From Mesostigma viride (lineage: Eukaryota; Streptophyta; Mesostigmatophyceae; Mesostigmatales; Mesostigmataceae), in NCBI GenBank assembly GCA_009746045.1, contig RPFO01000366.1, forward strand, positions 392,501-456,500: 64,000 nucleotides of DNA, written 5' to 3'. A program made the position numbers and the translations under genes. This document shows, piece by piece, positions 18,288 through 63,424 of this stretch (its first letter is position 1; every line of letters starts with the position of its first letter). The notes under the pieces are model-generated. The model ran no database searches and had not been told where the DNA came from. It was given only the letters and a program-made list of their open reading frames with translations.

Positions 18288-19844
18288 TTGGACCTGACCA
18301 GCTCCCAGCCCCGGTGATTAAGCTGACGGCGCTCACGAGGTTCCTGCTTGACGTCTGCAACCGGATCCTGCTCGCCGACGCGCCGCCGATTCCTGAGTGG
18401 CAGCACAGCTGCCGTATTATGCTGTACAAAAACAAGGGTTCCCCTGACGACCCCGCCAACTACAGAGGAGTCTGCATCCAGAGCGCCGCACTCAAGCTGT
18501 TCATGCGCATGATCCTCAACCGCCTTAGTTCTGCTCTCGTCACCTTGGGGAAAGTCAAATGGGCTTCCGTCCTGGGCGCAACACCGTCATGGCCATATCT
18601 TCGTCGCGCGTCGCCTCTTCTAGGAAATCGCTCTCCTATGTACAACCTGGTGAGTTTCCCGCCATCCTGATCTTCGTCGACTTCCTCAAGGCTTTTGATT
18701 CTGTCCTCTGGGACGCTCTATGGGCTGTACTTGCTCGCGCTCGCGTCCCCACTCCCGGCCCTGATTACCGTCATCCGCACGCTGTATGAGGGGTCGACCA
18801 CTTCGGTGCGCACTCAACACGGCATTACCCCGCCATGCCCACTGCAGACCAGCGTCTGGCAGGGTTGCGTCCTGTCGCCGTACCTGTTTATTATTGTAGT
18901 GGATTATGTTATGCGCCAGGCACGTGCTCGCTTTGCTAGCGGTTGCAGGCCGTGCCCCTGGCCTATAGCGATCACGAACGAGCTTGGAGAAGGGGGGCCG
19001 ACGAACAAGCAGAATTTACCAGCTGACCTCATTTATGCCGACGACATCACGCTCATCGAGAAGCCGGAGTCTGCCCAACTTTGGCTTGACTGCCTGGCGC
19101 TCGAGGCTCGGGCGCCGGTTGGTCTAGAAATCAGCCCCAAAATGGAGGCCCTGGCCCTCGGCATGGCAGGGCCCCCACCCACGCTCCGCCTCTTAGACGA
19201 TGCCGAGGTCAACTACCCTCCTTCAGGCCGCTTCAAGCTGCTCGGCAGAACTTGGCTTCCCGACTGCGAGGACGACATGACGACACGGATCGGCATGGCG
19301 TGGGCGCACCTCCATGACCACCGCCGCTGGTGGAGCAACCCCGCCCTGCCCGGCCCGGATCGTCAAGCGTGACCTCTAATGTTCAAGGTCGTCATTCTGA
19401 CGATCCTGACCTACGGCGCCGAGACCTGGACACTGACGCAGGAGCTGGAGCAACGACTCGACGGCGCCGTCATCAAGATGCTGCGCAAGGCCCTTAACAT
19501 CCCCTTTGGTTTGCACATTAGTAAATTATCAGGACTTGTACGCTGATTTGCCCTATGTTTTCCACATTTTTTGGCACAGGCGCCTGGGCCTAGCCGGGCA
19601 CCTGGCCCGCACAGATCAGGTAGATACATCAGATAGACTAGCTGGCACCAAGCCTGCCCAGCCTGGGCGTTATGTCCTCACCTGGCGTGCCCCCGGCCGC
19701 GCGCAGCTAGCAGGGCCGCCACCCGTGGTGGACTTTTCGTGATAGACTCGGCATGGACATGTGCTACACTAGACGTGACGGGCTCACACCCGGGCAGCCT
19801 CCTGATTTGTCTGTTATATGGAGGCAGATGGTGCGCAAGGATAG
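18288..19844 (+). mobile_element. Non-LTR retrotransposon reverse transcriptase fragment (copy A), multiply frameshifted
   Basis: In successive frames the RT core can be followed: fingers (WQHSCRIMLYKNKGSPDDPA), motif A (FVDFLKAFDSVLW), motif B (VWQGCVLSPYLFIIV) and motif C (LIYADDITLIEK). A C-terminal region with LTYGAETWTLTQELEQ and a 3' UTR follow. At least three frameshifts break it. The 5' part with the endonuclease is missing. The 3' UTR is cut at 19844 by a 3.85-kb TIR element and resumes at 23702-23935, where it ends in TTAA-rich sequence. A close paralogue lies at 49499-51055. Confidence 0.8.
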
Positions 19845-33089: not shown

Positions 33090-33155
33090 TCATACTCCGT
33101 ACAGGACGTAGACAGGACCTCGGCAAATGTTTGGACATGATTCTGGTGTTACAGG

Positions 33156-34616
33156 GTGTTTACTTGCATTCCTCACGGTGACCTTACGCGCCTTCAGCCT
33201 GGTGAGTCCCCTCTGCACCTTGTGCTGGTGGACTTCATCAAAGCCTTCGATTCGGTTTTCTGGCCTGCGCTTTGGGACATCCTCGAGTTGTTCCGGATCC
33301 CCCGCCCCCTTGTTGCTGTCATCCGCAACCTGTATGAAGGGTCCACCACTTCGGTGCGCACTTCTTACGGGACCACGCCCCCATGCCCTTTACAAAAGGG
33401 TGTGTGGCAGGGCTGCGTGCTGTCGCCCTACCTGTTCATTATTGTGGTCGAATACGTAATGATTCAGGCGTGCAAGCGATTTGCCCGCATCGTGGGTAGG
33501 GAACCAGGGGTGCAGGTCGCTAACAAATTCTGGCATGGCGGAGCGGACACGGAGATTCGGCTGGCAGACATCATCTACGCAGACGACACCACCCTCTTTG
33601 AGGACACTGGGCACGTGCAGACATGGCTTGACTGCCTGGCTATCGAGGCCCGTGCAGTGGGGCTTGAGGTCAGCAAGAAGACAGAGGCCCTAGCGGTTGG
33701 GCTCACCCACTCGCCGCCACCCCTCTATCTCCTCGACGGCTCTCGAGTCCTGTATCGGGACCGCGTCAAGCTGCTGGGCAGCCTGCTCCGCAGCTGCGAG
33801 GTTGATGTGGACCATCGCATCTCCCTCGCCTGGCACGCTTTACGCCAGTACCGGGCCCTGTGGCGCAAGCCCCTGGGCAAGATCGAGAAACAGGACCTGT
33901 TCAAGGTCCTCGTCCTTCCTGTTCTCACATATGGGGCCGAGACGTGGACCCTCACCGCCGACCTGGCCCGCAAGCTGGACGGCGTGGTCACCAACATGCT
34001 GCGTTCCATTTTCAGAGTAGGATATGCTGCTCATGTCCGCAATGAGGACCTGTACCAGGGCATGCCATATATCACCAGCACCATTAAGCAGCGGCGCCTG
34101 CAGCTAGTAGGGCACTTAGCTCGCACCAACCAGGTAGACACCTCACGTGGCCCCCCCGCACGTGGCCCCCCCGGCAGGTCTGCGACCAGCTCAGCCTGGC
34201 CGGCACCTCCTGACGTGGGCCGGGCCCAGTCATCATTAGACGCCGCAAGGCCCGCACCTTCAAAGAACAGCTAGTAGAGGACATGGGGGGCCTAGGCCTC
34301 TCCGTAATCTGGACGAAGATGATGGACAAGGCCAAGTGGGCCCTGGTCATAGAGGACAACGAGCCCCCCCCTGCGGGGAAGCGCCCGCGTGTGCAAACCC
34401 CTGGGAGGCACGCCAGCCAGCTCCCCTAGGGCAGCGTGAGGCTGTCTAGATAGATCATGTTGTAGTTAGAATGCTGTTTGATAGATGTCGTAGGTAGCTG
34501 ATGTAGATAGATTAGACCGGTAGGACTATTTGCACCCATCCATCCATCCATCGGGGTTAATGCTCCGTGACTCCCCAACGGGAGCACGTGAGTCTAATTA
34601 ATTAATTAATTAATTA
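33156..34616 (+). mobile_element. Non-LTR retrotransposon RT and C-terminal region (copy B) with complete 3' end
   Basis: A single frame from 33156 to about 34140 carries motif A (LVLVDFIKAFDSVFW), motif B (VWQGCVLSPYLFIIVV) and motif C (IIYADDTTLFED). The C-terminal thumb-like region has LTYGAETWTLTADLARKLDG and LQLVGHLARTNQVD. A frameshift or in-frame stop at 34140-34215 separates the last 70 residues (TFKEQLVEDMGGLGLSVIW), which end at about 34430. The 3' UTR has (CATC)4, the hairpin CTCCCCAACGGGAG and a TTAA tail at 34597-34615. The 5' part (endonuclease, fingers) is missing. It is the least damaged RT in the window. Confidence 0.85.
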
Positions 34617-42200: not shown

Positions 42201-45200
42201 GGCTGGACAATGGTGTGTGCGTTCTGCTACTGCTTTGCAAGGCATTCCCCTACTAATATATACTACAGCAAAGCATAGTAAATCACCCAGCATCCTTTCC
42301 TACTGCTTGGCAAGGCAATCTCCCACCACTTGCTTCTCTATAGCTTCTTATAGTTAATCACCCAGCATCCCTTCCTCCCGAAGGCAATCCTTGAGTGGTT
42401 TGATTCTAATTGTCTAGTGGATGAGCCAAGGAAGGTAGGTGGTCCATGAACTGACACAGAAAGCATGAAAGGGAGGCACCGCGCGCACGCGTAGCAGGGC
42501 GACAAGCATCATGAATAGCGCACAGGTGACCTGGCTGTGAGTGTTTACGGTGGCTTGTGCCGCAGCACGTTTTTCTTTGTGCATTGTAACTTGTACTTTC
42601 TCGGTCCGGTTATTGATCTACTGGCCAATAGCTCTCTGAAATGCTAGTCTTGTTGCGAGCCCTATCCCCTCCACTCCCCCTCTTTCTCGCTTTCCTCCAT
42701 CCCCTTTAATCCCCTTCTATACTATCCCTCTTCCTCAACCGCTGCCATATGTATTCCCTCAACCCCTGCCATCACTCTTCCCTCAATTCTCGCCCCTTTC
42801 CTCAGGACAAGCTGGACATGGCGGTCAGCGAGCGCAGCCAGGCGTGGTTGCTGCGGGAGCTGATGGGGGAGGAGGGCGACAGGGGGGCAAAGGGCGAGCG
42901 GGGCGCCAGGCAGGCGGAGCAAGGGAAGGCCAAGAAGGAGGCCAAGGCCAAGGGGAAGGAGGCCAAGGAGAGGGAGGCGAAAGAGGCCAAGGAGAGGGAG
43001 GCGAAAGAGAGGGAAATGAAAGAGGAGGCGAAAGAGAAGGAGGCAAAGGAGAAGGAGGCAAAGGAGAAGGAGGCAAAGGAGAAGGAGGCCAAGGAGAAGG
43101 AGGCAAGGGACAGGGATGAGAAAGAGAAGGAGGCACAGGAGAAGGAGGCAAAGGAGAAGGAGGCCAAGGAGAAGGAGGCCAAGGAGAAGGAGGCAAAGGA
43201 GAAGGAGGCAAAGGAGAAGGAGGCACAGGAGAATGAGGCGAAAGAGAATGAGGCGAAAGAGAATGAGGCGAAAGAGAAGGAGGCGAAAGAGAAGGAGGCG
43301 AAAGAGAAGGAGGCGAAAGAGAAGGAGGCGAAAGAGAAGGAGGCGAAAGAGAAGGAGACGAAAGAGAAGGAGGCGAAAGAGAAGGAGGCGAAAGAGAAGG
43401 AGGCGAAAGAGGCCAAGGAGAAGGAGGCAAAGGAGGCAAAGGAGAGGGATCTGAAAGAGAGGGAGGCGAAACAAGCCGAGGAAAAGGAGATGACGGCAGA
43501 GTTGGAGCCGCATCTGAAGGCAGCCAAGGACGAGAGAGGGATTTGGGAGGAGGAGGCAACGAGAAGGGCGCGGCTCTCGCATGAGACGGCTGCAGAAGAG
43601 GAAAACGATTTAAAATCATCCGAGGCGGTAAAGGGGGCAAAGGAGGGAGAGGCAGCAGCAAGGGCAAAAGCAGCAAGAGAAGCAGAGGAGGCGGTGGATT
43701 TAGAGGAGGCGGAGGAGGCCCAGGTGAGGACAAGATGTGACTGGGAAGCTAGAGGATTTGAACCTCTAGAAGGACTTTTTTTTTTTTGCTTGAAAGGCAT
43801 GGCAGAGAGGTGCACGAGAAGGAGGAGGCCCAGGTGAGGAAGCAGAAGAGCAGGATCCAACCTTTTTCATAGCGGTTGCCTTGCAAAGCATAGCAGCAGC
43901 GGCCTAGGCACTACATTGGGCACATCGCGGTCACTGCAGTGGGAACCCATTGCGGCTGACTGGCAACGCGGTAGGAAGACCGTGACTGGGAGAGCTTGCA
44001 TGGGACTTGGGTGATTGGAAGGTGGTTGGTGAGGGCCAGGAGAGGGGTTAAGGAAGGTGAGGGGAAGACCTTGCTAGTTCGTGGGGGGCGGGGGAGGTAT
44101 GAAGGAGGGAGCAGGTTGGGGAAGGCTTGGGGAAGAGGTTTGGCAGGGGTATTTGTTGTCGTGGAATAGGGGGTTGCTTTCCTTGGGGTGTCGTGGAATA
44201 GGGGTTGCTTTCCTTGGGGTGTCGTGGGATAGGGGGTTGCTTTCTATCTTGGGCTGAAATCAGCTTTAGCAAACAAAGCATGTTGGGGACCCGGGGGACG
44301 GCAGGGGAAGAAGTGGATTTTGGAAAGGGCGAATGGAGAAGTAAGCTTAGTTTGTGTCTACCATTCTTGGAATGGAGCCTGCCTTTTGGTCTTGTTGGAC
44401 AGGACGCAAGGGGCGCGTAGACACCAACGAAGCGCGAATGATATGGTCGGTGCTCGCGTGCTCGTTGGCCCGGTATTCACGGCGGTCATTTCCTCCCCCG
44501 CCGTTGCGCGCCTAGCTACCGCCCCCCTTGCTCCCCGATGCCCGCTTGTGTCCTTTCTTTCGACAGTCCGTGATGTGTAGCCGCTGCATAGTCTCTAACT
44601 TGCTCGTGCGTGCTGGTTGCAACCGTGTGTTAATTGCCACCATGGATTTTTCTTCTTGCTCCACGCCCCCTCCCAAAAGCGCCTGTTCGAGCGGTCCACC
44701 GGTGTCCGGGAGCAACCGCAGCCGCAAAGGGTGGATGAGCTCCAGGAGTTGGAGTCGCGGAGGTAAGCTCCTATCTCTATATGTATGACGTGGAGACGCA
44801 GAGGTATGCTCCTATCTCTGTATGTATTAGGTGGAGTCGTGGAGGTAAGCTCCCATCTTTATACTAGTATGTATGATGCGGAGTCGCAAAGGTACGCTCC
44901 TATCTCTACATGCATTGTTGGATTTTCTCTTTTCTCTGTCTTTGTATCTGTTCGCTTAAGCAATCGTGCTGTTATCTAGGTGGTTGGGTTGTTGTCTGTA
45001 GTCATTATTATTATTGTTGTTTATTGTTATTTTTATTTAGACGGCTTTGTACGTGTATGTGCTAATGATGTGTGTATGCTGTACACACATATCCATACAA
45101 ACTGTTTGCATACATAGTTTACATTTTTTACGCAGGTTACTTTGTTTGCATACACAGACTGCTTTGCGCTTGCCCACACGTATTAAAGGACTTGAGGCTG

Positions 45201-47181: not shown

Positions 47182-47353
47182 TTAATGTGCTTGTGTTTGT
47201 CATCAGTAATCTGATCTTCAACATGCTGCGTGGGACTGGAAAGCAAATGTTCTATGCGTGGGCAACCAATTAGCCGCTCTTGGCAGGTTGAAGCGATGCA
47301 CAAACGGGGTTCATTCATAATCTGTGTAACAGGAATCTGATGTCCATGGCCCG

Positions 47354-48436
47354 ATGGAACTACTTGCTTATACTAGGCTTATAATATGGCGGCATTGGTT
47401 GTTCAACCTTGGCCGTGACAGGTCGGCAATTGAGGAAACGCCGGTGCATGCGCACCAGGATCTGCATGAGCAGACCGTGGCCGCAGGGGCTAGAGCCACC
47501 AGAGGCCAGACACAGGAGCCGGGCCCACCCGGCCGCAGCGCCGCCCCTGTATCAGCAGCGACGCCCGCACAGTCAGTGGCTGCGGTGGGTCCACGTGCCC
47601 GGGCCGCGACCGGGAAGAAGCCCATCCGACCATCCCCCCCGGCGATGCAGCCAGTGACGCCGCCCCTGCTTCCGCTGCAGAAGCGGTACGCGCACATGCA
47701 CGGGATGGGCCCGGCCGAGCTGGCGCGGCTGAACGGCCTGCTCACGTCCCTTCTCAAGTCCCAGCTGCTGGAGCCGAGCCAGAGCCCTTACTCTGCTGGC
47801 ATCCGCCTCCTGGCCAAGCAGGAAGGCCTCTCGCGCCTGGTGCTGGACTACCGGCAGCTGAACGCGATGACCGCCCTCTCCGACAACCGCTCGCTGCCTC
47901 GCCTCGATGACAAGCTGCTGGGCCGTGCCTCGGGCGCCGCGTATTTCACCCTGGCGGGCTGCTCGCACGCCACCTGGCAGGTGCGGCTCGCGCCGGGGGA
48001 CTGCATGAAGACAGCGTTCCTGACGCCGTTTGGGCGGTTCCAGTTCCGCGTGCTTCCGGTGGGGCTCGCGGGCGCGGCCGATTCCGTCCAGCTACTCATG
48101 AACGAGGTGTTTGGGGCGCAGATGGGCCTTCGATTGAGCCAACGCGGGGCCCAGGTTAGCTCAACTGGTAATAAAGGTTCATCAGAGAGCCGTGCAGGGA
48201 ATAGTGCCGCATCCCACAACAGTCCCCGCCCTTGCATGATAAACTACCTGGATGATCTCGTGGTGTACTCGCCCACTGCGGAGGGTCACATGCAGGACAT
48301 GGCCACGGTGCTGCAGGTCATGGCCGCAAATCAGATGACCACCTGTCACATCGCGGGGATGTGGTTTGATAGGCCAGTGACGGGCCGGTGCCGGACGCCA
48401 TCAGGCGAGACGGTCGGGACGGATCCCGATGAGTAG
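47354..48436 (+). CDS. Gypsy-like reverse transcriptase domain ORF, catalytically altered
   Basis: One 360-residue frame holds an RT domain of Ty3/Gypsy type. It has LVLDYRQLNAMT (about residue 161), YFTLAGCSHATWQVRLAPGD (196), KTAFLTPFGRFQFRVLPVGL (about 218), QLLMNEVFG and INYLDDLVVYSPT (295). In active enzymes the segment after YF carries the first catalytic Asp, and here that place reads G. The usual FGL of the next motif is VGL. A 35-residue Ser/Asn-rich insert precedes the YLDD box; it begins GTTAGC and ends CAACAG, so it may be an intron remnant. No protease, RNase H, integrase or LTR is found nearby. It is either a decayed fragment or a domesticated RT-like gene. The first 50 residues look non-coding. 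Confidence 0.6.
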   Translation: MELLAYTRLIIWRHWLFNLGRDRSAIEETPVHAHQDLHEQTVAAGARATRGQTQEPGPPGRSAAPVSAATPAQSVAAVGPRARAATGKKPIRPSPPAMQPVTPPLLPLQKRYAHMHGMGPAELARLNGLLTSLLKSQLLEPSQSPYSAGIRLLAKQEGLSRLVLDYRQLNAMTALSDNRSLPRLDDKLLGRASGAAYFTLAGCSHATWQVRLAPGDCMKTAFLTPFGRFQFRVLPVGLAGAADSVQLLMNEVFGAQMGLRLSQRGAQVSSTGNKGSSESRAGNSAASHNSPRPCMINYLDDLVVYSPTAEGHMQDMATVLQVMAANQMTTCHIAGMWFDRPVTGRCRTPSGETVGTDPDE

Positions 48437-49498
48437 AAGTAAGTCTGGTGGCCCCTGCTTTCGTGGGACTGTGGGCATGGGCTACATGACCGATTCGGTG
48501 GCACGTCATGCTGTACGTAAGCGTTGCGTGCATGGATTTATGCCTGCTGTCAGATGTCATCGGCTGGGGGCGCGCTAGGCATGCTTTATACAGTCTGGGT
48601 TACTATTTATTAAGTTGCCTGAAGATGGGAAAGCCCCCACGGCTGTGCGGGCAACAAGAAAATTCATAGTTTGGTGTTTAGCATGCATGGGCCATTGCGG
48701 CAGATGAAGAAAGATCTGGCGTGCGAGTTTCATGCTGCAGCCTGCTATGGTATGAAATGATAAACCCTGAGGGCAGGCAGGAAACATCACTAGTTGTATC
48801 TGCTTAGCTTGTGTATTCCACGGCGACCTCGCACGGTACAGCCAGTACTTGCGCGGCGTAAGTGGGCCGGGGTGTCGCCGCGACCCCCCTGCAGTGGCTG
48901 CCGGTGCCGTGGGCTGCCAGCATTCAGTGGGCGGAACTTGCGCTGCGGCGCACACATACCGCATGACGCAATGTGAACGTCAACGCACTGCCTAGCTGGC
49001 ACATCCCAATGCGCCGCGCACTGGCGTCCGCGACGACTTTGGTTCGGTCTTGGGCGACACTGGGCCAGTCCCCACCATGTATATATTGCACACGAGCTGA
49101 CTTTGCAGCGTAGCACGGTTATTAGGCTGTTTTACTTCATTCCGCGGTGTGGATCCAGTGTCCCATGCCGGCTGTAGTTGTTTTGTCGTTGTATCTCTTG
49201 TTACAGTAGCGTTGGCTTTGTTTATTTTTACGTGGGTGCCTTCACTCTGATGTGAGTAATTATATTTTTAAATATGTATGTATGGAAAGGTGCCAGCCAC
49301 GTTGGGCCAGCCACAGCTAGCCCCGCACTAGTCAGGGCCCCACCGGGACGTACGCGTCTACCTGGTCATTCGTCAGCTAGGATTTGTCTGCGCCCGGTAA
49401 TTAACTGGCCATCCTTTATTAGCCCCCAGGCAGCTAGGCCCGCGTCCGGATCCACTGGTGGTAGCATAGGCATTAATTGATTTTATTATTAATATCAA
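48437..49498. other. Gene-free interval
   Basis: No supported gene or RNA. The sequence is unremarkable apart from AT-rich stretches near 49200-49280 and 49470-49500, the latter bordering the LINE copy. Confidence 0.45.
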
Positions 49499-51055
49499 TC
49501 GGATTACGTTATGCGCCAGGCACGTGCTCGCTTTGCTAGCATTGCAGGCCGTGCCCCTGGCCTAGCGATCACGAACGAGCTTGGGGAAGGGGGGGCGACT
49601 AACAAGCAGAATTTACCAGCTGACCTCATTTATGCCGACGACATCACGCTCATTGAGAAGCCGGAGTCTGCCCAACTTTGGCTGGACTGCCTGGGGCTCG
49701 AGGCTCGGGCGCCGGTTGGTCTAGAAATCAGCCCCAAAACAGAGGCCCTGGCCCTCGGCATGGCAGGGCCCCCACCCACACTCCGCCTCTTAGACGATAC
49801 CGAGGTCAACTACCCTACTTCAGGCCGCTTCAAGCTGCTCGGCAGTTGGCTTCCTGACTGCGAGGACGACCTGACGACACGGATCGGCATGGCGTGGGCG
49901 CAACTCCATGACCACTGCCGCCGGTGGAGCAACCCCGCCCTACCCCGGATCGTCAAGCGTGATCTCTTCAAGGTCGTCATTCTGACGATCCTGACCTACG
50001 GCGCCGAGACCTGGACACTGACGCAGGAGCTGGAGCAGCAACTCGACGGCAACGTCACCAAGATGCTGCGCAAGGCCCTTAACATCCCCTTTGGTTTGCA
50101 CATTAGTAATGAGGATTTGTACGCTGATTTGCCCTATGTTTCCCACATTATTAGGCACAGGCGCCTGGGCCTAGCCGGGAACCTGGCCCGCACAGATCAG
50201 GTATGTAGACACATCAGATAGACTAGCTGGCACCAAGCCCGCCCAGCCTGGGCGATATGTCCTCACCTGACGTGCCCCAGGCCGCGCGCGGCAGGGCCGC
50301 CACCCGTGGACTTTTCGTGATAGACTCGGCATGGACATGTGATACACTAGACGTGACGGGCTCACACCCGGGCAGCCTCCTGGTTTGTCTGTAATATGGA
50401 GGCAGATGGTACGCAAGGATAGATGGCAAGTAGTGATGCATGAAGGAGACCACCCCCAAGTCTGTGGGGGCTCCGGCGTGTGACCGCGTATGGCATTCAT
50501 AGCGATTCGGGCCGTGGTGCCCACAACCCTGTAATTAGGACCTAGATAGCTTACATTCCATGTGATGGACACATCATCGATAGACTGGCTGCATTGCAAT
50601 GGCACCAAGCCCGCCCAGCCTGGGCGTTATGTCCTCACAGTCACCTTACGTGCCCCAGGCCGCGCGCGGCAGGCCGGGCCGCCACCCGTGGACTTTTCGT
50701 GATAGACTCGGCACATGGACATGTTGTGCTACACTAGACGTGACGGGCTCACACCCGGGCAGCCTCCTGGTTTGTCTGTAATATGGAGGCGCAGATGGTA
50801 CGCAAGGATAGATGGCAAGTAGTGATGCATGAAGGAGACCACCCCCAAGTCTGTGGGGGCTCCGCGTGTGACCGCGTATGGCATTCATAGCGATTCGGGC
50901 CGGCCCGGCGTGGTGCCCAGAACCCTGTAACTAGGACCTAGATAGCTTACACCATCCATTCCATCCCATGTTCCCCTCCCGGCACTGAGGACTTATGCTC
51001 ACGCGACGCAGTCACGAGTCTATTAATTAATTAGTTAATTATAAATTAATTAATC
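49499..51055 (+). mobile_element. 5'-truncated LINE (copy C): RT C-terminal half plus doubled 3' UTR
   Basis: It starts abruptly at the equivalent of 18900 in copy A and keeps one open frame (49511-50221) through LIYADDITLIEKPESAQ, LTYGAETWTLTQELEQQLDG and the C-terminal LAGNLARTDQ. The RT palm is cut just upstream of motif C, so it cannot be active. The 3' UTR occurs twice in tandem (about 50205-50570 and 50571-50960) and closes with ACGCAGTCACGAGTC and a TTAA tail to 51055. High identity to copy A suggests recent insertion. Confidence 0.8.
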
Positions 51056-52560: not shown

Positions 52561-52607
52561 TCATTCGAAGTCTGCAGCGTCCAGCTCGGACTCCTGAACG
52601 TCCAGCG
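52561..52607 (-). CDS. Terminal A-type exon with stop
   Basis: After a TGCAG acceptor it reads LDVQESELDAADFE and then TGA. It is an A module that ends where others have FEA and a donor. The shared LD start links it to the two A-like variants rather than to the AYD modules. Confidence 0.8.
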
Positions 52608-55600
52608 CTGCATGTACAGTAAAACATTGGTTGCACATTCAAGCTTTAAAGCATGACTGGTCGTGAAAGCCAGCACAACTGTGCAAAAGTATCAGGGTAA
52701 TATCCAAAGACCAATCCCGTCCTGTGGACCTATCCTTTGGATATGTCCACAGTGTTCAGCGCTACAAACAGAAGTGCTCTCACACATCGAGCATGGAACA
52801 GATTACCAACAACAAGGTGCCCAATATTGTCAGGTAACAACTCAGTGCTGGCCTCGGAGGACATGTATGAGCATGCAATGCCGATACATACCTGCATGTC
52901 CTCGCAATTATCATCAAAACCGTACGTACTAGTTGTGCATCAACCCAGTCTCTGGAAAGCCGGAGTGCTTATGGCTGGAACATCATCCCACTTGAGGCAG
53001 CAAGAGAAGATAGGGTGCCCTTCCTCCTCGTTCTGTAGAGGGGTTCTTTATTGGCACCTGTGTGGCGCAGTCACGTGCCCCAAGATCTGCGAGTCCTCTC
53101 CGTGGAACCCCTATAAATAGTAATGATAGACAAACGCTATGGGTTGCCTTGTGAATAACTCATATCAAAACAGAGGTAGCGTGCTTACTTACCTCCAGCT
53201 GGAGCCGGCGCAGGCGCGGGCGCGGGCGCGGGTGCTGGTGCGTACTGCAGCAGCTTACGACCTGCAAATGATCAAACAAGGCATGGTAGACACATAGCAG
53301 GAAGGCAGTCGGGCTTATTATCTAGTGACCCATGGGCGATGCTAACAAGCGACAGAATCAAATTGACAGATAGGAGAGTCTTATCAGCGGGTGCATCAGC
53401 CAAGAGTATCAACTTCAATCGACGCATCTGCTGGACGGAATGGCTACATGCAAAGCTGAGGCTTCCTGCTTGGTGGATACTGTTAAGCGTCCCTTGCACG
53501 TTATTTGGTTCGAATTGCCTCTTCTTTTTCCCCCTTTCTCTTCTCCTTTTCGCGCTCCTCTTGAGTTAGGGCTGACTCACCGCGCTCACATGGAGAGACG
53601 TCACTCACCAGCCTCAAAGTCCTCCGCGTCCAACTCCGACTCCATCATGTCGTAGGCTGCGGTATGCATGGGTCGACCCCAAGAGCCAGCCAAGAACCAC
53701 ACCCCAAGTTCCAGCCAATAACCAGGCAAGTACCGGCCCAGGGAGCAGCCAGCCAAAGTTAGCGAGAATACGATAATGCAGGACCAGGGACAGAGGCAGG
53801 CCCGGGACAGTGGCACCAAGAATGATCAGTAACATGTCAAAGCAGCGAGCTTGCATCTTGCAGTCCCAGACATAATTTTAGAAGCGCACGCAAAAGTGCT
53901 TTAAGTGTCCCATGGACCTTGTGATCAGGAGAGGCATGTGGCACCCTCCCGGGCCAAACAAGAAATGTTGTGACAAAACATGTTCCTGGTTTCGCTCACC
54001 TCCTGCGGGGGCGGGTCCCGGCGCGGGGGCGGGGGCGAACTGGAGCAGCTTCCTCCCTGCCGCGATCAAATTCGGTCGCCACAATGTAACGAAGAAAGTA
54101 AGTCGGTTAATCGAAGAACCATGGTAGGTCCTGCATGTGGGTACTGCTACTGATGGTGCAGTCAGATATTGACACTCATCAATCAACATGCGGGAAACAC
54201 AAACAAGCCAAGGAATGGTGCCTGTGCAGGTGGGTCTCTCTCTGTCACAGGAGGCCTAGCCGAATACAGAGAAGGAAACAGAAGTGGACCACTCACTAGC
54301 TTCAAAGTCCTCCGCGTCGAGCTCCGACTCCATCATGTCGTAGGCTGTGGTGGGAGGAAAAGAAAAAAGGAAAAAGAACAAGAAGAGAAGAAAGAAGAGA
54401 AGAAGCACAAAGAGTGAAGGGAAGAAGGAAAAACACCAACATTAGTACCCCAACCCTCATCAATTCACAGGATACCGCGCAAGGGCGAAGAGGAAAAAAT
54501 TAAGTTGATGGAAAGATCTCAAGAACTGCAAAGTTAAAACAAATGATATCGTGAAATTGGTGGAACAAATGTACCATAGTAATGCCCAGGGTCACCGGAG
54601 TAGGTAAAATCCAAACACATGTTTTTAAGTACAAATCTCAAGGTGCGTTTTGGAAAGTGGTAAAGCAGAAAGACAGGAGGGTGGGCTGATTCACTTACCC
54701 CCAGCTGGGGCAGGCGCGGGGGCCGGGGCTGGGGCAAACTGGAGCAGCTTCCTCCCTGTGAAAGCGAAAGCAGGATGGGACGAGGTAAGAAGCAAGCCAC
54801 AGGAGAGCCAGTGTGAGAGAAGCAACAGCCCAAGAGAGATGTTGGGGAAAAAATATGCACGGGCATCTGAGGTGACTGCAACTGACAAGCATAATTAATG
54901 CCCCCGAGGCAAATAATGCCCCCAACGCAAATAATGCCCCAAGGCGCAAAACATTATGCTTGCTAATCACAAACGGCAGATTTCACTCACTGGCTTCAAA
55001 GTCCTCCGCGTCCAGCTCCGACTCCATCATGTCGTAGGCTGTGGTGGGACAAGGGCGGAGGATCAGCAGGGATCATATAGTGACCACGCATTGAACCCCA
55101 GAGAAAGATGAAATGCAGAAAACCTGTTATGAAAAATGTAAAAAGAATCGACGTATTTGTAGTACACAATAGCCCTTGTCTGTGTGTCAAAGGAACCTAC
55201 TGAACAAGACTGGCCGGACTAACTGCGACCAATCGTTAATCCAGGTAATGGTTCAAATCCATACACTGAAGGCAACCATGCCAGGCTGAAATTCCAATAT
55301 CATTGAATAAGTAGCGCGCAGACGTAGTGATGTAGGAGTACAGCTTTTAGTGGCAACAAAGCAATATGATTGAACGGGTGCATATGTGGGAATTACCGAT
55401 AACAACATGGGTCAACATGCCGATGGAGGCCTCGATACCATAGGATGCACAGAAGAGCGAGGGAAATGCCGTTCATTGCTTACCGCCAGCTGGGGCAGGC
55501 GCGGGGGCAGGTGCAGGGGCAAACTGAAGCAGCTTCCTCCCTGCATTGTGCAAAGGTGGACAGGCAGAACCAAACCCCCCAGATCCCGGAATCAGAGTTT

Positions 55601-58600
55601 TTGCCAAGTTTTCTCATCATACGCAAGGCCATACAAAAAACGTCTAGAAAGTTAATCGTGCTTATATACTCACCAGCCTCTGTGTCCAGCTCCGACCCCA
55701 TCACGCCAAGTGCTAACTTAGGTACTAACATACGTACTAAACATACGACTGCAACTACTACAGTCTATAGTGTGCGTTCAAATACTCACTGGCTTCAAAA
55801 TCCTCCGCGTCCAGCTCCGACTCCATCATGTCATAGGCTGTATGAGGGACATACGGTTGGAATGAGCGCCGGAAGGGACAGGTTTGACAGAAAAAAGTGA
55901 CAGTCAGAAACATTTCGGGATAAGTAACAGAAGGAAAAGATTTGGAATGAAGTACACAAGGAAAAGGCCTCGGATAAGTGACAGCTGACAGAATGAACCA
56001 ATTTCCCAGAAGTGCTAGGTCAGAGCGCAGCCATCCTCTTTCCACTACAGAATGTGAGGGAGTGATCTTTGGCGCAGCGCATAAGATATGAAATAAAAGA
56101 TCCTAATCACTATTGTGTGATAAGAATTATGTGTTTAGTCCTTTCACCAATCACTCGAGCTGCAACTGCCCAAGATTTTCAAAACTAGGGTCTGTACAAG
56201 ACAAATTTCCTTTGCAGGCAAGCACTGATAAGTGCAAGGGAAACCCTAGATTGCTTACCGCCAGCTGGGGCAGGCGCAGGGGCGGGCGCAGGGGCAAACT
56301 GGAGCAGCTTCCTCCCTGCTCGTGCAACGGTGGGCAGGGGAAAAGGCCATCAGGAAAGGAGGGTGGCAGTGAAAAGGCCATCGAATTCTGAGCAGACCAT
56401 GGACCCTTGTCTATTGTATGCAGCGAAACTGGGCCTTGCCATAACACAGAAGCAAGGTATAGCTAGCAATGCGTCCAGTGTTCAAAGCACCGTGAGGAGG
56501 ATAAAGAAGTGCAGCCCAATGTCAAGGCACCTCTCTGCCCATGAGGGAACAGCAAAGCAGACTCAAGGCATGTCAGTTAGTGCACCATACTAGGTCGGAG
56601 CTTCCAGCGTCACTCACTGGCTTCAAACTCCTCCGCGTCCAGCTCCGACTCCATCATGTCGTAGGCTGAGGAATGGGATGCGCAGATGGGCAGACAAGCA
56701 GGTTTTAGGGGTGGGAGGGAAAAAAAGGGGGAGTGAAGAGAGGAAGAGAGTTATTTTAGGGGAGGTGGGGGTGAGAGCATTGCAGTTTTAAAATGCAGCA
56801 AAGTCAGAAACAGTGAATAGGGGACGTACAGTCACATACTATGAGAGTTGAGACTCAATAGGAACTTCGGAATGGCTCTTGTCAAGATGTTAGGGTGCAA
56901 CGATCGTATTATACTCTTACCTCTGGGGTTCATTTCCCCCGACTCTCCCTCATTGGTGCGGCTGCGCAAGCATCAATTATGGTTGCATGGCTGCAAACAG
57001 AGTTGTGTCCTGCGATCGCGACTAGGTATACCCCTACCAAGTGCCGACAGCTTTAGTCAACAGGAGAGCGCCAATCGGCAAACTTCCTTGGCCAATCGGC
57101 AAACTTCCTTGGCCAAGCGGCATTCCTTGGCCATCGGCAAGCTTCCTTGGCTTATCAATCGATAATAGCCAGTAACCTACCCCCCAAAAGAGGGGACGCC
57201 CTGCTTGCTTACCGCCAGCGGGCGCCGGGGCAGGGGCAGGGGCAGGGGCGGGGGCAGGTGCAAATTGAAGCAGCTTCCTCCCTGCGCAAGCAAATCCAAA
57301 TCCACAGCAGAATGCCATGAAATGATGAGTCACTGCAACCTGGAGCAGCTTTTTCCTCCTTGCAGGGGTAATGGACACGTGGAACCAAGCAAGGGGCACA
57401 ATCCAAGAGTGCTTAAAACCTACGGCTTCGCAAGGCAACCCCCTAGAAAGTCTTTTTAGGAGTGACCGAGCAGCTGTCCATGGCAGCAGACACTTAGATA
57501 GGCAAGAAACGGAACAAATGGATGGGCAGGACGCTTAACATGTGGGAGATGGAAACTTGACACGTGGCGGATGGCCGGGACAGTGCAGCCGCAGGCAAGA
57601 GGCCAATGTGCATTTACATGCTGGCAGACATAATAACCCTAGCCCATACTTGTTAGCAGGGCAGAGCACGGCATGCGCCCTTGTGGATAGCATTATTTCT
57701 ATGGCTCTGATACCGCGCACGATTTTACTTGGAAGGACTAGCGATGAGGTGGCACATGGTGGAACGACATTTCTGCCCTCATGCCGCGTTAAATTCTACT
57801 ATTCCAGAAGCCAACTCACTATTGCCAGGGGGTTATGGGATGTGAGTAAAAAGTAGAAGCTCACTCACCAGCCTCAAAATCCTCAGCATCGAGCTCGGAC
57901 TCCATCGCATCATAGGCTGATGCGTAACAAGCAGGGAGAAGTCGACCGGGTGGAGTAGTACAGCCACTCAACGTATTATCAGGCACGTTTTTAATACTAA
58001 GATGCCATGAGGCCACTAGCCTGGAATGCTGAATAAGAACTGAGCAACCTCTGAATAAGTCAAAAGGTACATGGGGAAAGTCATGCAATGCAATGTCCTC
58101 CATAACTATCTGTACTGCTCTAGATATGACTCTGAATAAGGCAAAAGGTACATGGGCAAAGTCATGCAATGCAATGTCCTCCATAACTATCTGTACTGCT
58201 CTAGATATGACTCTGAATAAGGCAAAAGGTACATGGGCAAAGTCATGGAGTGCAATGTTCTCCATAACTATCTGAACTGCTCTAGATATGACTCTGAATA
58301 AGGCAAAAGGTACATGGGCAAAAGTCATGGAGTGCAATGTCCTCCATAGCTATCTGTACTGCTCTAGATATGACCTGAATTGCAGGGTCCCCAGGGTCAT
58401 GACTGCCTAGGTAGCCCCACAACACACAAGGCCTGGCACAAGGCATGGCGCAACACTCTCTGCTGGTGCTATGCTCCTGCCATCTTCACTCAACGAGTTT
58501 GAAGGTGGCATACAACATAGAAACACTAGCCACACGCTACTAAGCCTAGAGAAGCTGACCCACAGGGAGGATAACGTAGGCCGGAACGGCAGGCAGGAGC

Positions 58601-61600
58601 GAATGCAGAGCATATATGAACATGCAACACAAGAACTAGTACAAGGGTCTGCACTAGGATGGTTTCTCCCTTACATCGGAACATGCAACACAGGAGCCCC
58701 CGCGTGTGTCTGCACTGGGATGGTTTCTCCCTTACATCGGAACATGCAACACAGGAGCCCCTGCGTGTGTCCGCACTGGGATGGTTTCTCCCTTACATCG
58801 GAACATGCAACACAGGAGCCCCCGCGTGTGTCTGCACTGGGATGGTTTCTCCCTTACATCGGAACATGCAACACAGGAGCCCCCGCGTGTGTCTGCACTA
58901 GGATGGTTTCTCCCTTACATCGGAACATGCAACACAGGAGCCCCCGCGTGTGTCCGCACTAGGATGGTTTCTCCCTTACATCGGAACATGCAACACAGGA
59001 GCCCCCGCGTGTGTCCGCACTAGGATGGTTTCTCCCTTACATCGGAACATGCAACACAGGAGCCCCCGCGTGTGTCTGCACTAGGATGGTTTCTCCCTTA
59101 CATCGGAACATGCAACACAGGAGCCCCCGCGTGTGTCTGCACTAGGATGGTTTCTCCCTTACCGCCAGCAGGCGCGGGGGCCGGGGCAGGCGCGGGGGCG
59201 AACTGGAGAAGCTTCCGCCCTGCATGCCAGAACCAGCAAAAATTCACGTTCAGGGGCAGGCAGGAAGGTGGAGATGAAGAGGGTGCGTGAGGGGGGAAGG
59301 GGCGGATTAAGAAGAAGGGTAAAAGGGGGGGGGGCGGGGTGTGAGCAGAAGGCGAGCCGTGGCAGCTTTTTGACAAGAGAGTTGGCTGGGGTAATGTGCG
59401 CTTTGAAGAAACAAAACGCAAGTTCACATACTCCTATGGCTGTGTGCCTTGCTCAAAATAAATTGTTAAAGGTTCTTGAAGTATATGTTGAGAGTAGAAA
59501 CATGATGGGCACCAGATATCCAACAAAAACTGCCATCTGCACTCAACAGCACACAACCTCACCGTGCGAGCACCACTCATCAGCCACTCATCAGGCAAGT
59601 CTTCATCGTCCAGCTTCGACTCCATCATGTCAAGTGCTAACATACTACGTATTACAACTATTACAACTGTTACTACTATTACTACTATTACTACTATTAC
59701 TACTATATTACAACATCTTCTACTACTATAGGCTTTAGTATGCGCTCGAATACTCACTGGCTTCAAAGTCCTCCGCGTCCAGCTCCGACTCCATCATGTC
59801 GTAGGCTGTCGCGAGGGAGAAAACCCAAAGAAAAGAAACCAAGCACACAGACGTTGACCATGTCATGCCAGTCCTGGAAGAATGGAGGGGGTGCGGAAAC
59901 CAACCAGTCAAGTGCTGGGCTATGAGATCTGAAGCAGATGGAATTCGGCCCCAACCGCCAGACAGCAGGGCATTGGCCATGAGGGAGCGTGGTGATTCGC
60001 ATGCTGAGGTGACAGGTGATGCAAATGCTGACCACATGCGAAACAGGGGAACTGTGAACAACACACCTGAGACAAGAAGCCACTTGACAACGTGGAGGGG
60101 ATGGCACATGCAAGACTGGCTATCCGGATGAGTGGCGCGCCTAGTGACAAAAGAGGGGGGGGGGGATCTCGAAGAGACATGTGGCCACGATGGTACTGCA
60201 AAGCAGCTTGCTACTACTCCAGAAGCCCTTACATCACATCATGACCCTAAACATCCCAAAGACACTTCCAGATCATGTTCATAGCACGGTGCAAATGAGA
60301 ATATGCACGTGGTCGCATTTGGCTTGTGACTGTTAAGCTCCCTATGGAAACCTTGACAAAATCACTACTTAATGCGGCAGGTGTGCTTTTACTGAGGAAG
60401 CATCATTGCAGGAAATTTTGAAGCATGGGGAAAGCATGAGCAGGCCCAGGGCAACTTGTCGCTCAGTGTAGACAAGAGCTTACCGCCCGCGGGCGCGGGT
60501 GCAGGCGCGGGCGCAGGCGCGGGCGCGTACTGCAGCAGCTTCCTCCCTGCTTGCGCATTCGCCCACAAGGACATGAACGCGTTGCGGTCTTTGGGAGAAT
60601 AGTGAGAGCGGCGCGGGGGAATGGAACCGGGAGCAGCACCATTATCATCATGGTTGCAGGCAAATTATCAGTGTGCACGGCTACCAACCCACGTAAAGAA
60701 ACATCCAAATACCAAAACAGCGCTTTTGTGGTGGCTGCTGGCACTCTTAAGTGGCACCATCGTTTTGCAGTGCTCAGTCCTTCCACACAAAATGCACAAG
60801 GCAGCAAAGGCTTGTGTACCATGCAACTATGATGATAGCCTTGAGAAAAAACTTCAACTATGATGATAGCCTTGAGAGAAAACGTAGTCCTCACAGACAG
60901 GTGCGCCCTTGAGAACATTTCAAGCCGTGTCTGGGCATGTCACCTAGCAATGCCGCAGCAACGTTTAATGCCATGTCTACAAACAGAGGATGTGCCCTGT
61001 TGGATACTGGACAGTGCTCCATGTCTGGGTATAGGTCATGTGCCATGGTATAGACAAGCCGGCCACATCTTCTGTTGACATGAACCCGACATGAATGGCT
61101 CATCCCTGAGTCTGCCAGCGACCTTGCACAGAGATGGGCACGCCAGTCATAGTGTGCTGTATCCATGCGTAGTCTCCCCTAGCTGTCCCCTGCCCCCTTC
61201 GAGGCAGGAACAAGGAACAATCTATAGGCTGTCAAGGAACCTTCGAGGCAGGAGCCATCTATAGCCTTGCAAGCTAGGTTTTTGTCTGTTCAGTGATCGG
61301 TAAGCCTGTTCACATGGATCTGGATGCAAACAATGGTTTGTTAGCGTATGACGCAAGATACTAGCCAACTCCTACACTGACCGAAGACAAGCGCAAGGAC
61401 TACACGAGCCAACTCCTACACTGACCGAAGACAAGCGCAAGGACCACACGAGCCAACTCCTGTACTGACCGAAGACAAGCGCAAGGACCACACGAGCCAA
61501 CTCCTGTACTGACCGAAGACAAGCGCAAGGACTACACGAGCCAACTCCTACACTGACCGAAGAAAATCGCAAGGACTACACGAGCCAACTCCTATACTGA

Positions 61601-63424
61601 CCAATCTCAAAGTCCTCGGCGTCCAGCTCCGACTCCATCGCGTCGTAGGCTACGCGGGCAGTGGACCATTGAGGGCACATCCATGTAGATAAAAAGCACA
61701 AGTCGACGCAAGAATGTGTGTGACAGCAGGGATGTGTGAAGGGTTCAAGGTGATCGTTTAAATGGGATGATGTTGCAGGCCAGCAGCCAAATGCCGAACT
61801 TTAAGTACACATTTCTGGCTAGAGAGTGAGCAAGGAACACATGTTGCTGGGTGAACAACGAGGAATAATTGCCTGCATCAAACCTGCAACAAAATAGTGC
61901 CCAATTTTTCTGAGGACAAGTTACTACAAGGCCCAAGGCCCACGCCCAGGTACAATCAGATTTGTGGTGAAGTATACACGCTTAATGAGAGCCTTCTTAG
62001 AATATCAATGAACAGGTCAGAGCAGACCTAGACATAGGGCCTGCAGGTTGGTGTATCGTAAGCAGCACCGCAAGAATTCCAAGAATCTCAGCAAACCCAG
62101 AAATCAAAATGCGCGACCCTGCCCCATGCGTCATATCTCTTTAGTTAACGTACCAAGGGATAAGACCCAGAAACTACCACAAACATAATGCCCGACCCAG
62201 CCTCAGAACACCTCATTAAATTAATTTTACTTGATTTTTGCGCCTCTGGAAACATTTTTCAGACACATGATGTTTCTTAGCGTTCACGCTGCCACCGCAC
62301 ACACCGCGCTGCCCACTCACCGCCCGCAGGGGCAGGTGCCGGCGCCGGAGCCGGCGCAAACTGCAGAAGCTTCCTCCCTGCATGCACATACAATCAGCGA
62401 TGGGAGGTGGCATCAGGCAAGGGTGGGAAGTGTGTCGCAAACCAAGTTAATGGCCATCACTATTCAACATGACAGCCTACCTGGGACTATGCACTGGAAA
62501 TATGCAGAACAATATAGGCACCAAGATCGCAAGTGGACAGACCCTACAAGTCTGGCTGTCAGTGGGCGTGCAAACTGGAATGACGCCTAAGAAAGGATCT
62601 TGAATGCAGGGTGACCTGAGCAGTGAAGTAGCGTGCCCAAAGAATGCCATGAGTAGCATGTGCTGGCACGCATTTCGGAGTTCATGCCTGCTTCAGGAAG
62701 GACCAGCCAAACGCCATTTCCGGATAATCAGCCTCCTGCTACTGCAAATACTTGGACAGCTGCCTGCAGTTTGTCTTGTGACAAGCGGTAATTAGGATTG
62801 CCGTAAGTTTACGAACCTGCATTAGAGCCGACGACCAATTTATCATGAAGCACCCTCCCTGGACAAAGGCAGAGGACAAGCCAACGCAGCATGCACAGGC
62901 AATTACAACTGATTGAGGGTTGAGAAGGAGGCGGGACGAGTAGGAGGAGGGAGGAGGGCGGCAAGCTGTTTGCAGGGGAAACAGAAGAGAAGGTATGACT
63001 TGCGCAAGAATTTGTCAGTCAGTGCGTTGCAAGGTCTTCATACGATTTCGTCATGCATTATTAGCAGGAGCGACTTCCACTTTCGTTAAGGCAGCCTGTC
63101 AATAGGCGTCACCACCACAGCTGCCGCTTACTATAAACTTGCCATAACCACCCTGCCATATTTTGCTCGCAGCTGGTTGTATTTCATTTCCAAAGCCGTA
63201 TCGGAGCTGCCACGCTAACTAGCGAGGAGAAAGAGTATCCGAGCTTGGGATCGGTAACCTTGGGCTGGTGTGGAACCCTAGGGGGGCAGCATTGGTCGGC
63301 AATGTAGGGGAAAAAAATGTAGGACCGGGACGCCATTGCCGTCCCAATAGTTTCTCAACTTACCGGTGCAGAGCTGCAGACAACAAACCAGGGCCAAAGC
63401 CAGGAGGGACGCGCGGAAAGCCAT
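52561..63424 (-). CDS. Secreted modular protein: signal peptide plus alternating GRKLLQ-(AP)n and acidic micro-exons, about 21 exons
   Basis: The ATG at 63424 starts the signal exon (63364-63424, MAFRASLLALALVCC plus LQLCT). B exons encode (G/R)RKLLQ(F/Y) plus an Ala-Pro run: 62321-62377, 60484-60546, 59163-59219, 57213-57281, 56259-56315, 55484-55540, 54699-54755, 54000-54056, 53193-53261. A exons encode AYDMMESELDAEDFEA or variants: 61602-61649, 59758-59805, 57869-57916, 56618-56665, 55790-55837, 54991-55038, 54297-54344, 53609-53656. A-like exons lie at 59574-59636 and 55674-55712, and a terminal exon at 52561-52607 with a TGA stop. Every internal exon is phase 1 at both ends. The total is 378 residues, or 357 without 59574-59636. 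Ala-Pro runs are arabinogalactan-type glycosylation modules in green-lineage cell walls, so an extracellular glycoprotein is likely. Basic GRK sites would alternatively suit a multi-peptide precursor. I know no described family with this build. Confidence 0.8.
55674..55712 (-). CDS. Short A-type exon variant (13 residues)
   Basis: It reads LGVMGSELDTEA after a TTAG acceptor and ends in a good GTGAGT donor, phase 1 on both sides. It lies 77 bp after a normal A exon, mirroring the pair at 59758-59805 and 59574-59636, so the A plus A-like pair was probably duplicated together. Confidence 0.6.
57336..57362 (-). pseudogene. Relic of a B-type exon
   Basis: The minus strand reads AAGGAGGAAAAAGCTGCTCC and then CAGGTTGC, matching the first 20 bases of the B exons with two extra A bases. 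The acceptor AG is altered to AA and the Ala-Pro part is lost. It lies about 55 bp upstream of the intact B exon at 57213-57281. Confidence 0.5.
58035..58380. repeat. 81-bp minisatellite, about 4.3 copies
   Basis: Units carry CTCTAGATATGACTCTGAAT and AAGGTACATGGGCAAAGTC, with starts 81-82 bp apart (58121, 58202, 58283, 58365). It lies in the same 1.25-kb intron as the 61-bp array. The period is a multiple of three, which opens a false minus-strand frame. Confidence 0.95.
58615..59160. repeat. 61-bp minisatellite anchored at a splice donor, about nine copies
   Basis: Copies share GGATGGTTTCTCCCTTAC (at 58661, 58722 and so on to 59149, spaced 61 bp). The last copy runs directly into the B exon ending at 59163, so its TTAC is the GTAA of that exon's donor on the minus strand. 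Open plus-strand frames here are artefacts. Confidence 0.95.
59574..59636 (-). CDS. Degenerate A-type exon with a lost splice donor
   Basis: It encodes an A-like module (LDMMESKLDDEDLPD). At the place where sister exons have CTG then GTGAGT, this copy reads CTG then ATGAGT, so the GT is destroyed. A downstream GTGCTC would keep the phase and give 21 residues; otherwise the exon is skipped, which also keeps the frame. The adjacent A exon lies only 121 bp upstream in transcription. Confidence 0.45.
61365..61601. repeat. 44-bp minisatellite anchored at a splice donor, about 5.4 copies
   Basis: Units begin CCAACTCCTACACTGACC at 61365, 61409, 61453, 61497, 61541 and 61585. The last partial unit ends in the donor of the A exon 61602-61649. 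On the minus strand every unit therefore repeats GTCAGTGTAGGAGTTGG, a near copy of that donor. Confidence 0.95.
63364..63424 (-). CDS. Signal-peptide exon of the GRKLLQ-repeat gene
   Basis: It encodes a short Arg-containing n-region, a Leu/Ala/Val hydrophobic core and a Cys/Thr-containing end, then a GTAAGT donor with one base carried over. Joining to the first B exon gives GRKLLQ directly after LCT, so the mature protein would start at or near the first basic site. Confidence 0.8.

What the first reader, a model, noticed from the sequence alone, without database searches (positions are those of the whole stretch)
52561..63424. A secreted protein assembled from alternating phase-1 micro-exons
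Nine B exons (GRKLLQ plus Ala-Pro run) and up to eleven A exons (AYDMMESELDAEDFEA type) alternate after a signal-peptide exon and finish in an A-type stop exon. Acceptors, donors and phases agree at every junction I traced except one. Exons are only 39-69 nt, while introns run from about 80 to 1250 nt. Seen directly: the exons, their near-identity and phase. Known: Ala-Pro runs are arabinogalactan glycosylation modules. Inferred: a modular extracellular glycoprotein family that I cannot match to anything described.
Basis: partly seen in the sequence, partly recalled or inferred. Interest (0 to 1): 0.92.

Follow-up and report, generated by a model that had tools for sequence, protein, structure and literature searches.

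The report
Algal secreted protein of alternating micro-exons
An early-branching algal relative of land plants carries a gene, apparently for a secreted protein, built from nine near-identical pairs of tiny exons; a similar exon pair lies inside a copper-protein-like gene family elsewhere in the same genome, so the pair looks like a portable building block.

Summary
On the minus strand, 63424-52561, a signal-peptide-like exon is followed by nine strictly alternating pairs of B (57-69 nt) and A (48 nt) exons, the last A ending in a stop. Every intron is phase 1 and GT-AG (18 of 18); the spliced frame is open for 344 residues. Exon copies differ almost only at synonymous sites (pN/pS 0.09 for A, 0.035 for B), while introns are unrelated: coding sequence under strong selection. 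The organism is Mesostigma viride, an early-diverging streptophyte flagellate covered by scales. A genome search with the A motif found only these nine A exons, but a weaker relative turned up: in three of four phytocyanin-like genes examined, an Ala-Pro exon and then an A-like exon, again phase 1, interrupt the copper-protein-like domain. So the B-A pair looks like a shared, shuffled exon module. Each repeat begins with R-K-L-L-Q (9 of 9), which fits the site preferred by the Golgi subtilase S1P/SBT6.1. I think the product is an Ala-Pro-rich secreted protein cut into nine units of 33-39 residues; an uncut coat protein is the main rival. No RNA or protein data were available.

The parts
63364..63424 (-). 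Exon 1: start codon and signal-peptide-like segment (MAFRASLLALALVCCLQLCT + first base of Gly codon)
   Evidence: hydrophobic core by eye, donor GTAAGT, phase 1
62321..62377 (-). B1 exon, (G/R)RKLLQF-(AP)n-AG
61602..61649 (-). A1 exon, AYDAMESELDAEDFEI
   Evidence: donor GTCAGT
60484..60546 (-). B2 exon
59758..59805 (-). A2 exon
59163..59219 (-). B3 exon
57869..57916 (-). A3 exon
57213..57281 (-). B4 exon
56618..56665 (-). A4 exon
56259..56315 (-). B5 exon
55790..55837 (-). A5 exon
55484..55540 (-). B6 exon
54991..55038 (-). A6 exon
54699..54755 (-). B7 exon
54297..54344 (-). A7 exon
54000..54056 (-). B8 exon
53609..53656 (-). A8 exon
53193..53261 (-). B9 exon
52561..52607 (-). A9, terminal A-type exon ALDVQESELDAADFE and stop
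55674..55712 (-). A5' relic or facultative A exon, 39 nt, in frame, AG and GT present, degenerate sequence
   Evidence: matrix score 25.25 against background maximum 23.0
59595..59636 (-). A2' relic A exon, no GT donor
   Evidence: matrix score 38; lower limit approximate
57330..57362 (-). B4' relic B exon, acceptor broken, Ala-Pro run lost
   Evidence: limits approximate

Best explanation
This is a functional gene of Mesostigma viride for a secreted, probably disordered, acidic repeat protein. A phase-1 exon pair, an Ala-Pro exon followed by an acidic A exon, was multiplied nine times behind a signal-peptide exon. A pair of the same order and phase occurs once per gene inside phytocyanin-like genes, so the pair is a shared module, moved or kept by exon shuffling. 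In the secretory pathway the Pro residues are probably hydroxylated and O-glycosylated, and a Golgi S1P/SBT6.1-type subtilase cuts after each R-K-L-L, releasing nine units of 33-39 residues that begin with Gln (which could cyclise to pyroglutamate). The units act at the cell surface, either as coat or scale matrix pieces or as released peptides. Shown by sequence: exon anatomy, phase, purifying selection, likeness of the module. Inferred: expression, secretion, glycosylation, cleavage, final role.
For: Anatomy and open 344-residue frame. pN/pS 0.089 (A) and 0.035 (B) with unrelated introns. RKLLQ invariant in 9 of 9 units although the Arg, both Leu and the Gln codons vary (Lys is AAG in all). 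SBT6.1, the S1P orthologue, prefers R-(R/K)-X-L or R-(R/K)-L-X and cuts peptide precursors in the cis-Golgi, ahead of modifications that include Pro hydroxylation (PMC7162652, passages); RKLL meets both forms. The phytocyanin-like relatives read here carry AP and A-like exons without RKLLQ, so RKLLQ is a feature of the multi-copy gene. Three A-like exons score 41.25, 27.0 and 30.0 against a background maximum of 23.0 in 303,679 windows, each being the next exon found after an AP exon and in the same phase.
Against: No transcript, peptide or proteome evidence; no signal-peptide or disorder predictor was run. No S1P gene was sought in this genome. An exact A-core search matched only two A exons of this gene and the A-motif search only its nine, so no second copy confirms the structure. 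The alternation would also suit an uncut structural protein. The fourth phytocyanin-like gene examined has neither an Ala-Pro run nor a detectable A-like exon. The A-like exons share only 23-32 of 44 bases with A6 and A9, so convergence on an acidic segment is not excluded for the two weaker ones, which I found with a motif written after seeing the first.
Confidence: 0.55

Rival explanations
1. The protein is not cut: it stays a chain of about 324 residues in which Ala-Pro glycomodules alternate with acidic segments, and works as a matrix or scale-coat protein that binds cations or the scale lattice.
For: Alternating design, pI 4.07, no cysteine, 49 AP pairs. Mesostigma has basket scales with 2-keto sugar acids, and cellulose has not been found in its class (PMC10762512, passages). 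The related module lies inside phytocyanin-like proteins without RKLLQ.
Against: Does not explain why RKLLQ is invariant in 9 of 9 units, or why 5 of 9 sites read RRKLLQ.
Confidence: 0.33
2. Cleavage is at the basic run (RK or RRK) by a furin/prohormone-convertase type enzyme, followed by trimming and amidation at Gly, giving peptide signals of the kind known from Chlamydomonas.
For: Signal-peptide-like start, repeated units, dibasic sites, and G-R-K in 4 of 9 units fit the criteria used for Chlamydomonas precursors (PMC6313938, passages; PMC6919629, passages).
Against: Only 4 of 9 junctions have the Gly needed for amidation, and one of those directly follows the signal exon. LLQ would be unexplained. 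That survey excluded RK from the 'known motifs' it used with NeuroPred. The search of this genome for the amidating-enzyme family PF01082 did not complete.
Confidence: 0.08
3. The main point of the structure is splicing diversity, as proposed for schistosome micro-exon genes: since all internal exons are symmetric, any subset gives an open frame.
For: 17 of 17 internal exons are phase 1-1; schistosome genes have a similar layout and alternative splicing (PMC10526429, passages). A5' could be a facultative exon.
Against: Copies are nearly identical in protein, so skipping would change length more than sequence; no transcript data.
Confidence: 0.12
4. It is a dead or non-coding repeat array, and the exon-like likeness comes from recent duplication.
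For: Three relic exons exist; the window holds retroelement reverse transcriptases.
Against: Introns are near chance identity while exons keep the protein (pN/pS 0.035-0.089); 18 of 18 introns have GT-AG ends; one stop only, at the end.
Confidence: 0.04

Closest known systems
Schistosoma micro-exon genes (MEG)
   Same: Signal-peptide start followed by many very short exons, mostly multiples of three, with long introns; secreted products; hard for automatic annotation (PMC10526429, abstract and passages). Its reference list also holds a paper titled 'Tandemly Repeated Exons Encode...' on a schistosome gene (title fragment seen), so repeated small exons are not new as such.
   Different: Unrelated lineage and no sequence relative found. 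Here two exon types alternate strictly and copies are nearly identical in protein; that most MEG exons differ from each other is recalled, not tested.
Phytocyanin-like arabinogalactan proteins (stellacyanin/early-nodulin-like group)
   Same: In three of four Mesostigma phytocyanin-like genes examined, an Ala-Pro exon is followed by an A-like exon, phase 1.
   Different: The gene in the window has no phytocyanin domain; in the phytocyanin-like genes the pair occurs once, without RKLLQ, and lies inside the copper-protein-like domain.
Plant peptide precursors with S1P/SBT6.1 sites (RALF, CLEL)
   Same: Secreted precursor with R-(R/K)-L-X type sites (PMC7162652, passages).
   Different: As far as I recall those carry one peptide each; here nine units in one chain. 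I did not test for known peptide-hormone motifs beyond Pfam.
Chlamydomonas amidated-peptide precursors (GATI-amide)
   Same: Secreted green-lineage precursors with dibasic and amidation sites.
   Different: No sequence kinship shown; amidation glycine in only 4 of 9 units.

Membership tests
Micro-exon genes (Schistosoma MEG type) | Short symmetric exons with long introns behind a signal-peptide exon | tested here: met
   19 exons, mean 54 nt, 17 of 17 internal exons phase 1-1, introns 235-1246 nt; signal peptide judged by eye
Micro-exon genes (Schistosoma MEG type) | Sequence kinship with MEG proteins | tested here: not met
   No protein at E <= 10 for the full protein and only P0121 for residues 1-133; in each search only the 7995 candidates sharing most words, within 0.55-1.75 of the query length, were scored
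Micro-exon genes (Schistosoma MEG type) | Variants by alternative splicing | not testable with these tools
   No transcript data
Classical arabinogalactan protein | Signal peptide | tested here: inconclusive
   N-terminal hydrophobic core seen by eye; no predictor was run
Classical arabinogalactan protein | At least 50% Pro+Ala+Ser+Thr (rule recalled) | tested here: not met
   44.8% of the 324-residue mature chain
Classical arabinogalactan protein | C-terminal GPI signal | tested here: not met
   Ends DAADFE-stop, no hydrophobic tail (by eye)
Classical arabinogalactan protein | Hyp-linked arabinogalactan | not testable with these tools
   Ala-Pro runs are present (49 AP pairs)
Phytocyanin-like protein | Plastocyanin-like copper-binding domain (PF02298) | tested here: not met
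   Not among the 11 Pfam families reported at E <= 10
S1P/SBT6.1-processed precursor | R-(R/K)-X-L or R-(R/K)-L-X site | tested here: met
   RKLL in 9 of 9 units; rule from PMC7162652 passages
S1P/SBT6.1-processed precursor | Cleavage at the site | not testable with these tools
   Needs protein data
Amidated peptide precursor | Gly-(Lys/Arg)-(Lys/Arg) at each unit boundary | tested here: not met
   Gly before RK in 4 of 9 units, Arg in 5 of 9
Amidated peptide precursor | Amidating enzyme (PAM) in the genome | not tested
   Search with PF01082 not answered

The most novel reading that the evidence does not exclude
A multi-copy secreted peptide precursor in an early-diverging streptophyte lineage: nine glycosylated, pyroglutamate-capped units cut out by a Golgi S1P subtilase, made by amplification of a portable phase-1 exon pair that was also shuffled into a copper-protein domain. 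It would be an exon-shuffling and peptide-precursor system outside animals and land plants.
Probability: 0.3. Interest if true: 0.82.

Novelty: new variant of a known kind. Interest (0 to 1): 0.62.

Why it matters
As far as I know (recalled; searches), secreted-protein genes made of many symmetric tiny exons are known chiefly from schistosomes. A survey of plant and algal micro-exons of about 1-15 bp found few outside land plants and Zygnematophyceae (PMC11096116, passages), but it looked for conserved land-plant micro-exon tags and would miss a gene like this, whose exons are 47-69 nt. Here one gene has 18 such exons after its signal exon, and a likely relative of its exon pair sits inside a folded domain of another family, which makes exon shuffling directly testable in an early streptophyte. 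If the units are cut and released, Mesostigma would offer an early case of S1P-dependent multi-peptide processing. It also suggests that annotation passes over such genes: no Mesvir1 protein resembling the whole product was found (within that search's length and candidate limits), although Mesvir1 proteins are in that database; Mesvir1 may be another strain than the window's.

Tried and rejected
Protein-family and structure routes: Pfam reports 11 families for the spliced protein, two of them above their curated cut-off (C4bp_oligo 39.2 bits against 29.6; DUF7082 32.9 against 27). They match different short stretches of the repeats, are unrelated to each other and add up over copies, so I took them for repeat artefacts (judgement, not tested). 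The fold of P0121 failed (mean pLDDT 38.8) and was not used for a fold search. Of 30 ORFs, eight were scanned with Pfam: IQ, PT-repeat and reverse-transcriptase domains only. No tRNA; no Rfam match at gathering score.

Homology routes: the full protein found nothing; a local control showed that phmmer detects even a copy with 60% random substitutions at this database size, but only the 7995 candidates sharing most words were scored, so the negative is not absolute. Two degenerate DNA patterns in viral contigs gave 0. A regular-expression scan of 210 kb of contig C47 outside the window (L002-L022) gave 14 RLLQ/KLLQ rows, none with an Ala-Pro run or A motif. The genome search with two A variants returned 9 matches, the nine A exons of this gene; the phytocyanin A-like exons were below its threshold, so other diverged copies may exist. 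One search listed 18 matches for P0121; I read DNA for four genes of that cluster and left the rest. Whether other genes carry RKLLQ-AP exons stayed open: that search did not complete. Nor was the amidating-enzyme search. Other genome-search runs not answered: 6, 8, 13, 18, 26, 30, 34, 39, 42, 46, 54, 59, 60, 62, 64, 66, 68, 70, 72, 74, 78, 81, 83, 85, 87, 89, 91, 94, 96, 97, 102-104, 106, 109, 112-114, 116, 118.

One search listed 8 papers holding RKLLQ, none on algae by title. Seen: search listings and abstracts' beginnings; passages of PMC10762512, PMC6947507, PMC7162652, PMC6313938, PMC10526429, PMC11096116, PMC6919629; abstract and outline of PMC8831610 (an earlier try failed). None was read whole.

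Considered and dropped: coding on the plus strand (no match to the three motif expressions in any plus frame); a recent-duplication artefact (BLASTN among the 18 introns at E <= 0.01 found one pair, 37 nt, A2-B3 with A5-B6).
Full report
What is there. Reading the minus strand from 63424 to 52561 gives 19 exons: one signal-peptide-like exon, then B-A nine times. B exons (57, 63 or 69 nt) encode RKLLQ, then Phe or Tyr, then an Ala-Pro run and Gly. A exons (48 nt; the last 47 with the stop) encode Ala-Tyr-Asp-x-x-Glu-Ser-Glu-Leu-Asp-Ala-Glu-Asp-Phe-Glu and close variants. All 18 introns are GT-AG and phase 1; the spliced frame is 344 residues with one stop at its end. In 5 of 9 units the intron-split codon before RKLLQ is Arg and in 4 of 9 Gly.

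It is coding and under selection. Copies of each exon differ mostly at silent sites: A exons pS 0.504, pN 0.045 (28 pairs of the 8 internal copies; the terminal A9 was left out); B exons pS 0.649, pN 0.023 (36 pairs, first 12 codons only, because the runs differ in length). Bootstrap over codons gives ratio ranges 0.006-0.225 and 0-0.077. Intron flanks have 0.22-0.31 ungapped identity beyond the first 10 nt, and BLASTN between introns finds one 37-nt pair only. So the duplications are old enough for introns to have randomised, and the protein has been kept.

Relics. Three decayed copies lie in introns: A2' (no donor), A5' (39 nt, still with AG and GT, in frame), B4' (broken acceptor). A2' and A5' follow A2 and A5 in the same arrangement; the two A exons with neighbouring intron match at 89% over 93 nt, so they probably stem from one A-A' block copied as a piece (inference).

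Organism. A reverse transcriptase in the window is up to 90% identical to Mesvir1 proteins, the own genome is 439.9 Mb, and the published Mesostigma viride genome is 441.8 Mb with mean exon 329 bp, 4.81 exons per gene and mean intron 1142 bp (PMC6947507, passages). This gene, with 19 exons averaging 54 nt, is far from that average.

Is it alone? An exact A-core pattern matched twice in the genome, both here. A protein search with two A variants gave 9 matches from 9 candidates, all in this gene. No further A or B exon was seen in 210 kb of flanks.

A relative of the module. The first 133 residues found one weak hit (E 0.99): Mesvir1 Mv09166, P0121, with PAPAPAPAPAG-AAQ-SFDVQESAGDAADFE. Its resemblance is closest to the terminal exon of our gene (ALDVQESELDAADFE), which was not in the query. 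P0121 is probably phytocyanin-like: residues 30-71 align with cucumber stellacyanin 4-43 and residues 122-150 with 46-75, though weakly (E 0.03 for the protein; second stretch 2.4 bits, not significant alone). Pfam's plastocyanin-like family scores 15.7 bits as it stands and 19.5 bits with the insert left out, both under the family's cut-off of 20.8, so the family name is likely and not certain. The AP-A stretch thus appears to interrupt the domain.

Gene structure of that relative. In the own genome P0121 lies on contig C1402 as five exons. Reading the fetched DNA by eye: signal exon, domain N-part, AP exon, A-like exon, domain C-part, with all four introns phase 1. Two further genes of the cluster have an AP exon and an A-like exon (LDARESLEDPEAFE and FDAHESSEDPEVFE), also phase 1 at both ends by eye. 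In a fourth (L042) the exon that corresponds to the AP exon has no Ala-Pro run, and my motif scan found no A-like exon. One search lists 18 matches in all; the others were not read. Scored with a matrix made from the A exons, the three A-like exons give 41.25, 27.0 and 30.0; none of 303,679 background 14-residue windows (window plus 210 kb of flanks, this gene's strand and span left out) reaches 27, the highest being 23.0. The two weaker ones were located by motif expressions that I wrote after seeing P0121, so their scores are not free of selection; their place after the AP exon and their phase are independent of it. Base identity between the three and A6 or A9 is 23-32 of 44.

How it probably works. 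The pair order AP then A, the phase and the A motif are shared, so I read the window gene as the same module amplified behind a signal exon, with RKLLQ gained at the start of each unit (or lost in the phytocyanin-like genes). RKLLQ is invariant in 9 of 9 while four of its five codons vary. Plant SBT6.1, the S1P orthologue, prefers R-(R/K)-X-L or R-(R/K)-L-X, acts in the cis-Golgi and is described as older than the split of animals and green plants (PMC7162652, passages). Cutting after RKLL would give nine units of 33-39 residues beginning with Gln. Likelihoods of the steps, my judgement: real expressed gene 0.93; module kin to the phytocyanin-like exons 0.85; secreted 0.9; Pro hydroxylated and glycosylated 0.7; cut at RKLL 0.55; units act as signals rather than matrix 0.35.

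Against. No RNA, no protein data, no signal-peptide predictor, no check of S1P or PAM in this genome. Mesostigma is covered by scales with 2-keto sugar acids, and cellulose has not been found in its class (PMC10762512, passages), so an uncut coat protein is a serious rival. The schistosome micro-exon genes (PMC10526429, abstract and passages) share the layout but not, as far as searched, the sequence.

Verdict. It is a new variant of known kinds (micro-exon gene, Ala-Pro glycomodule protein, subtilase-processed precursor), and I could file it under none of them as a member.

Noticed in passing
61602-61363 and 59162-58647 (minus strand): Two tandem arrays (44-nt and 61-nt units) begin at the 5' splice sites of A1 and B3, so the donor sequence heads each unit: GGTCAGT in six successive units and GTAAGGGAG in nine. 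They could offer alternative donors or show how intron arrays grow away from an exon.
   Followed up: partly
58380-58049: A third array, 81-nt unit, about four copies, lies in the middle of the B3-A3 intron.
   Followed up: no
G000 contig C1402, about 3.068-3.132 Mb (outside the window): Cluster of phytocyanin-like genes on both strands, three of the four examined with an AP exon and an A-like exon inside the domain.
   Followed up: partly
18671-19372, 33141-34274, 47330-48436, 49493-50221: Reverse-transcriptase ORFs; those at 33141 and 47330 match RVT_1, the other two were noticed by eye. Retroelement-rich surroundings.
   Followed up: partly
10951-15678: Long ORF with an IQ calmodulin-binding motif behind a run of Asn-Gln-Pro-Thr repeats; the repeat region may be non-coding.
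   Followed up: no
42710-43837: ORF with a long Lys-Glu-Ala repeat (15-nt unit, about 33 copies).
   Followed up: no
63461: An upstream ATG, out of frame with the signal-peptide start at 63424, opens a 33-residue reading frame that overlaps it; possible upstream ORF.
   Followed up: no
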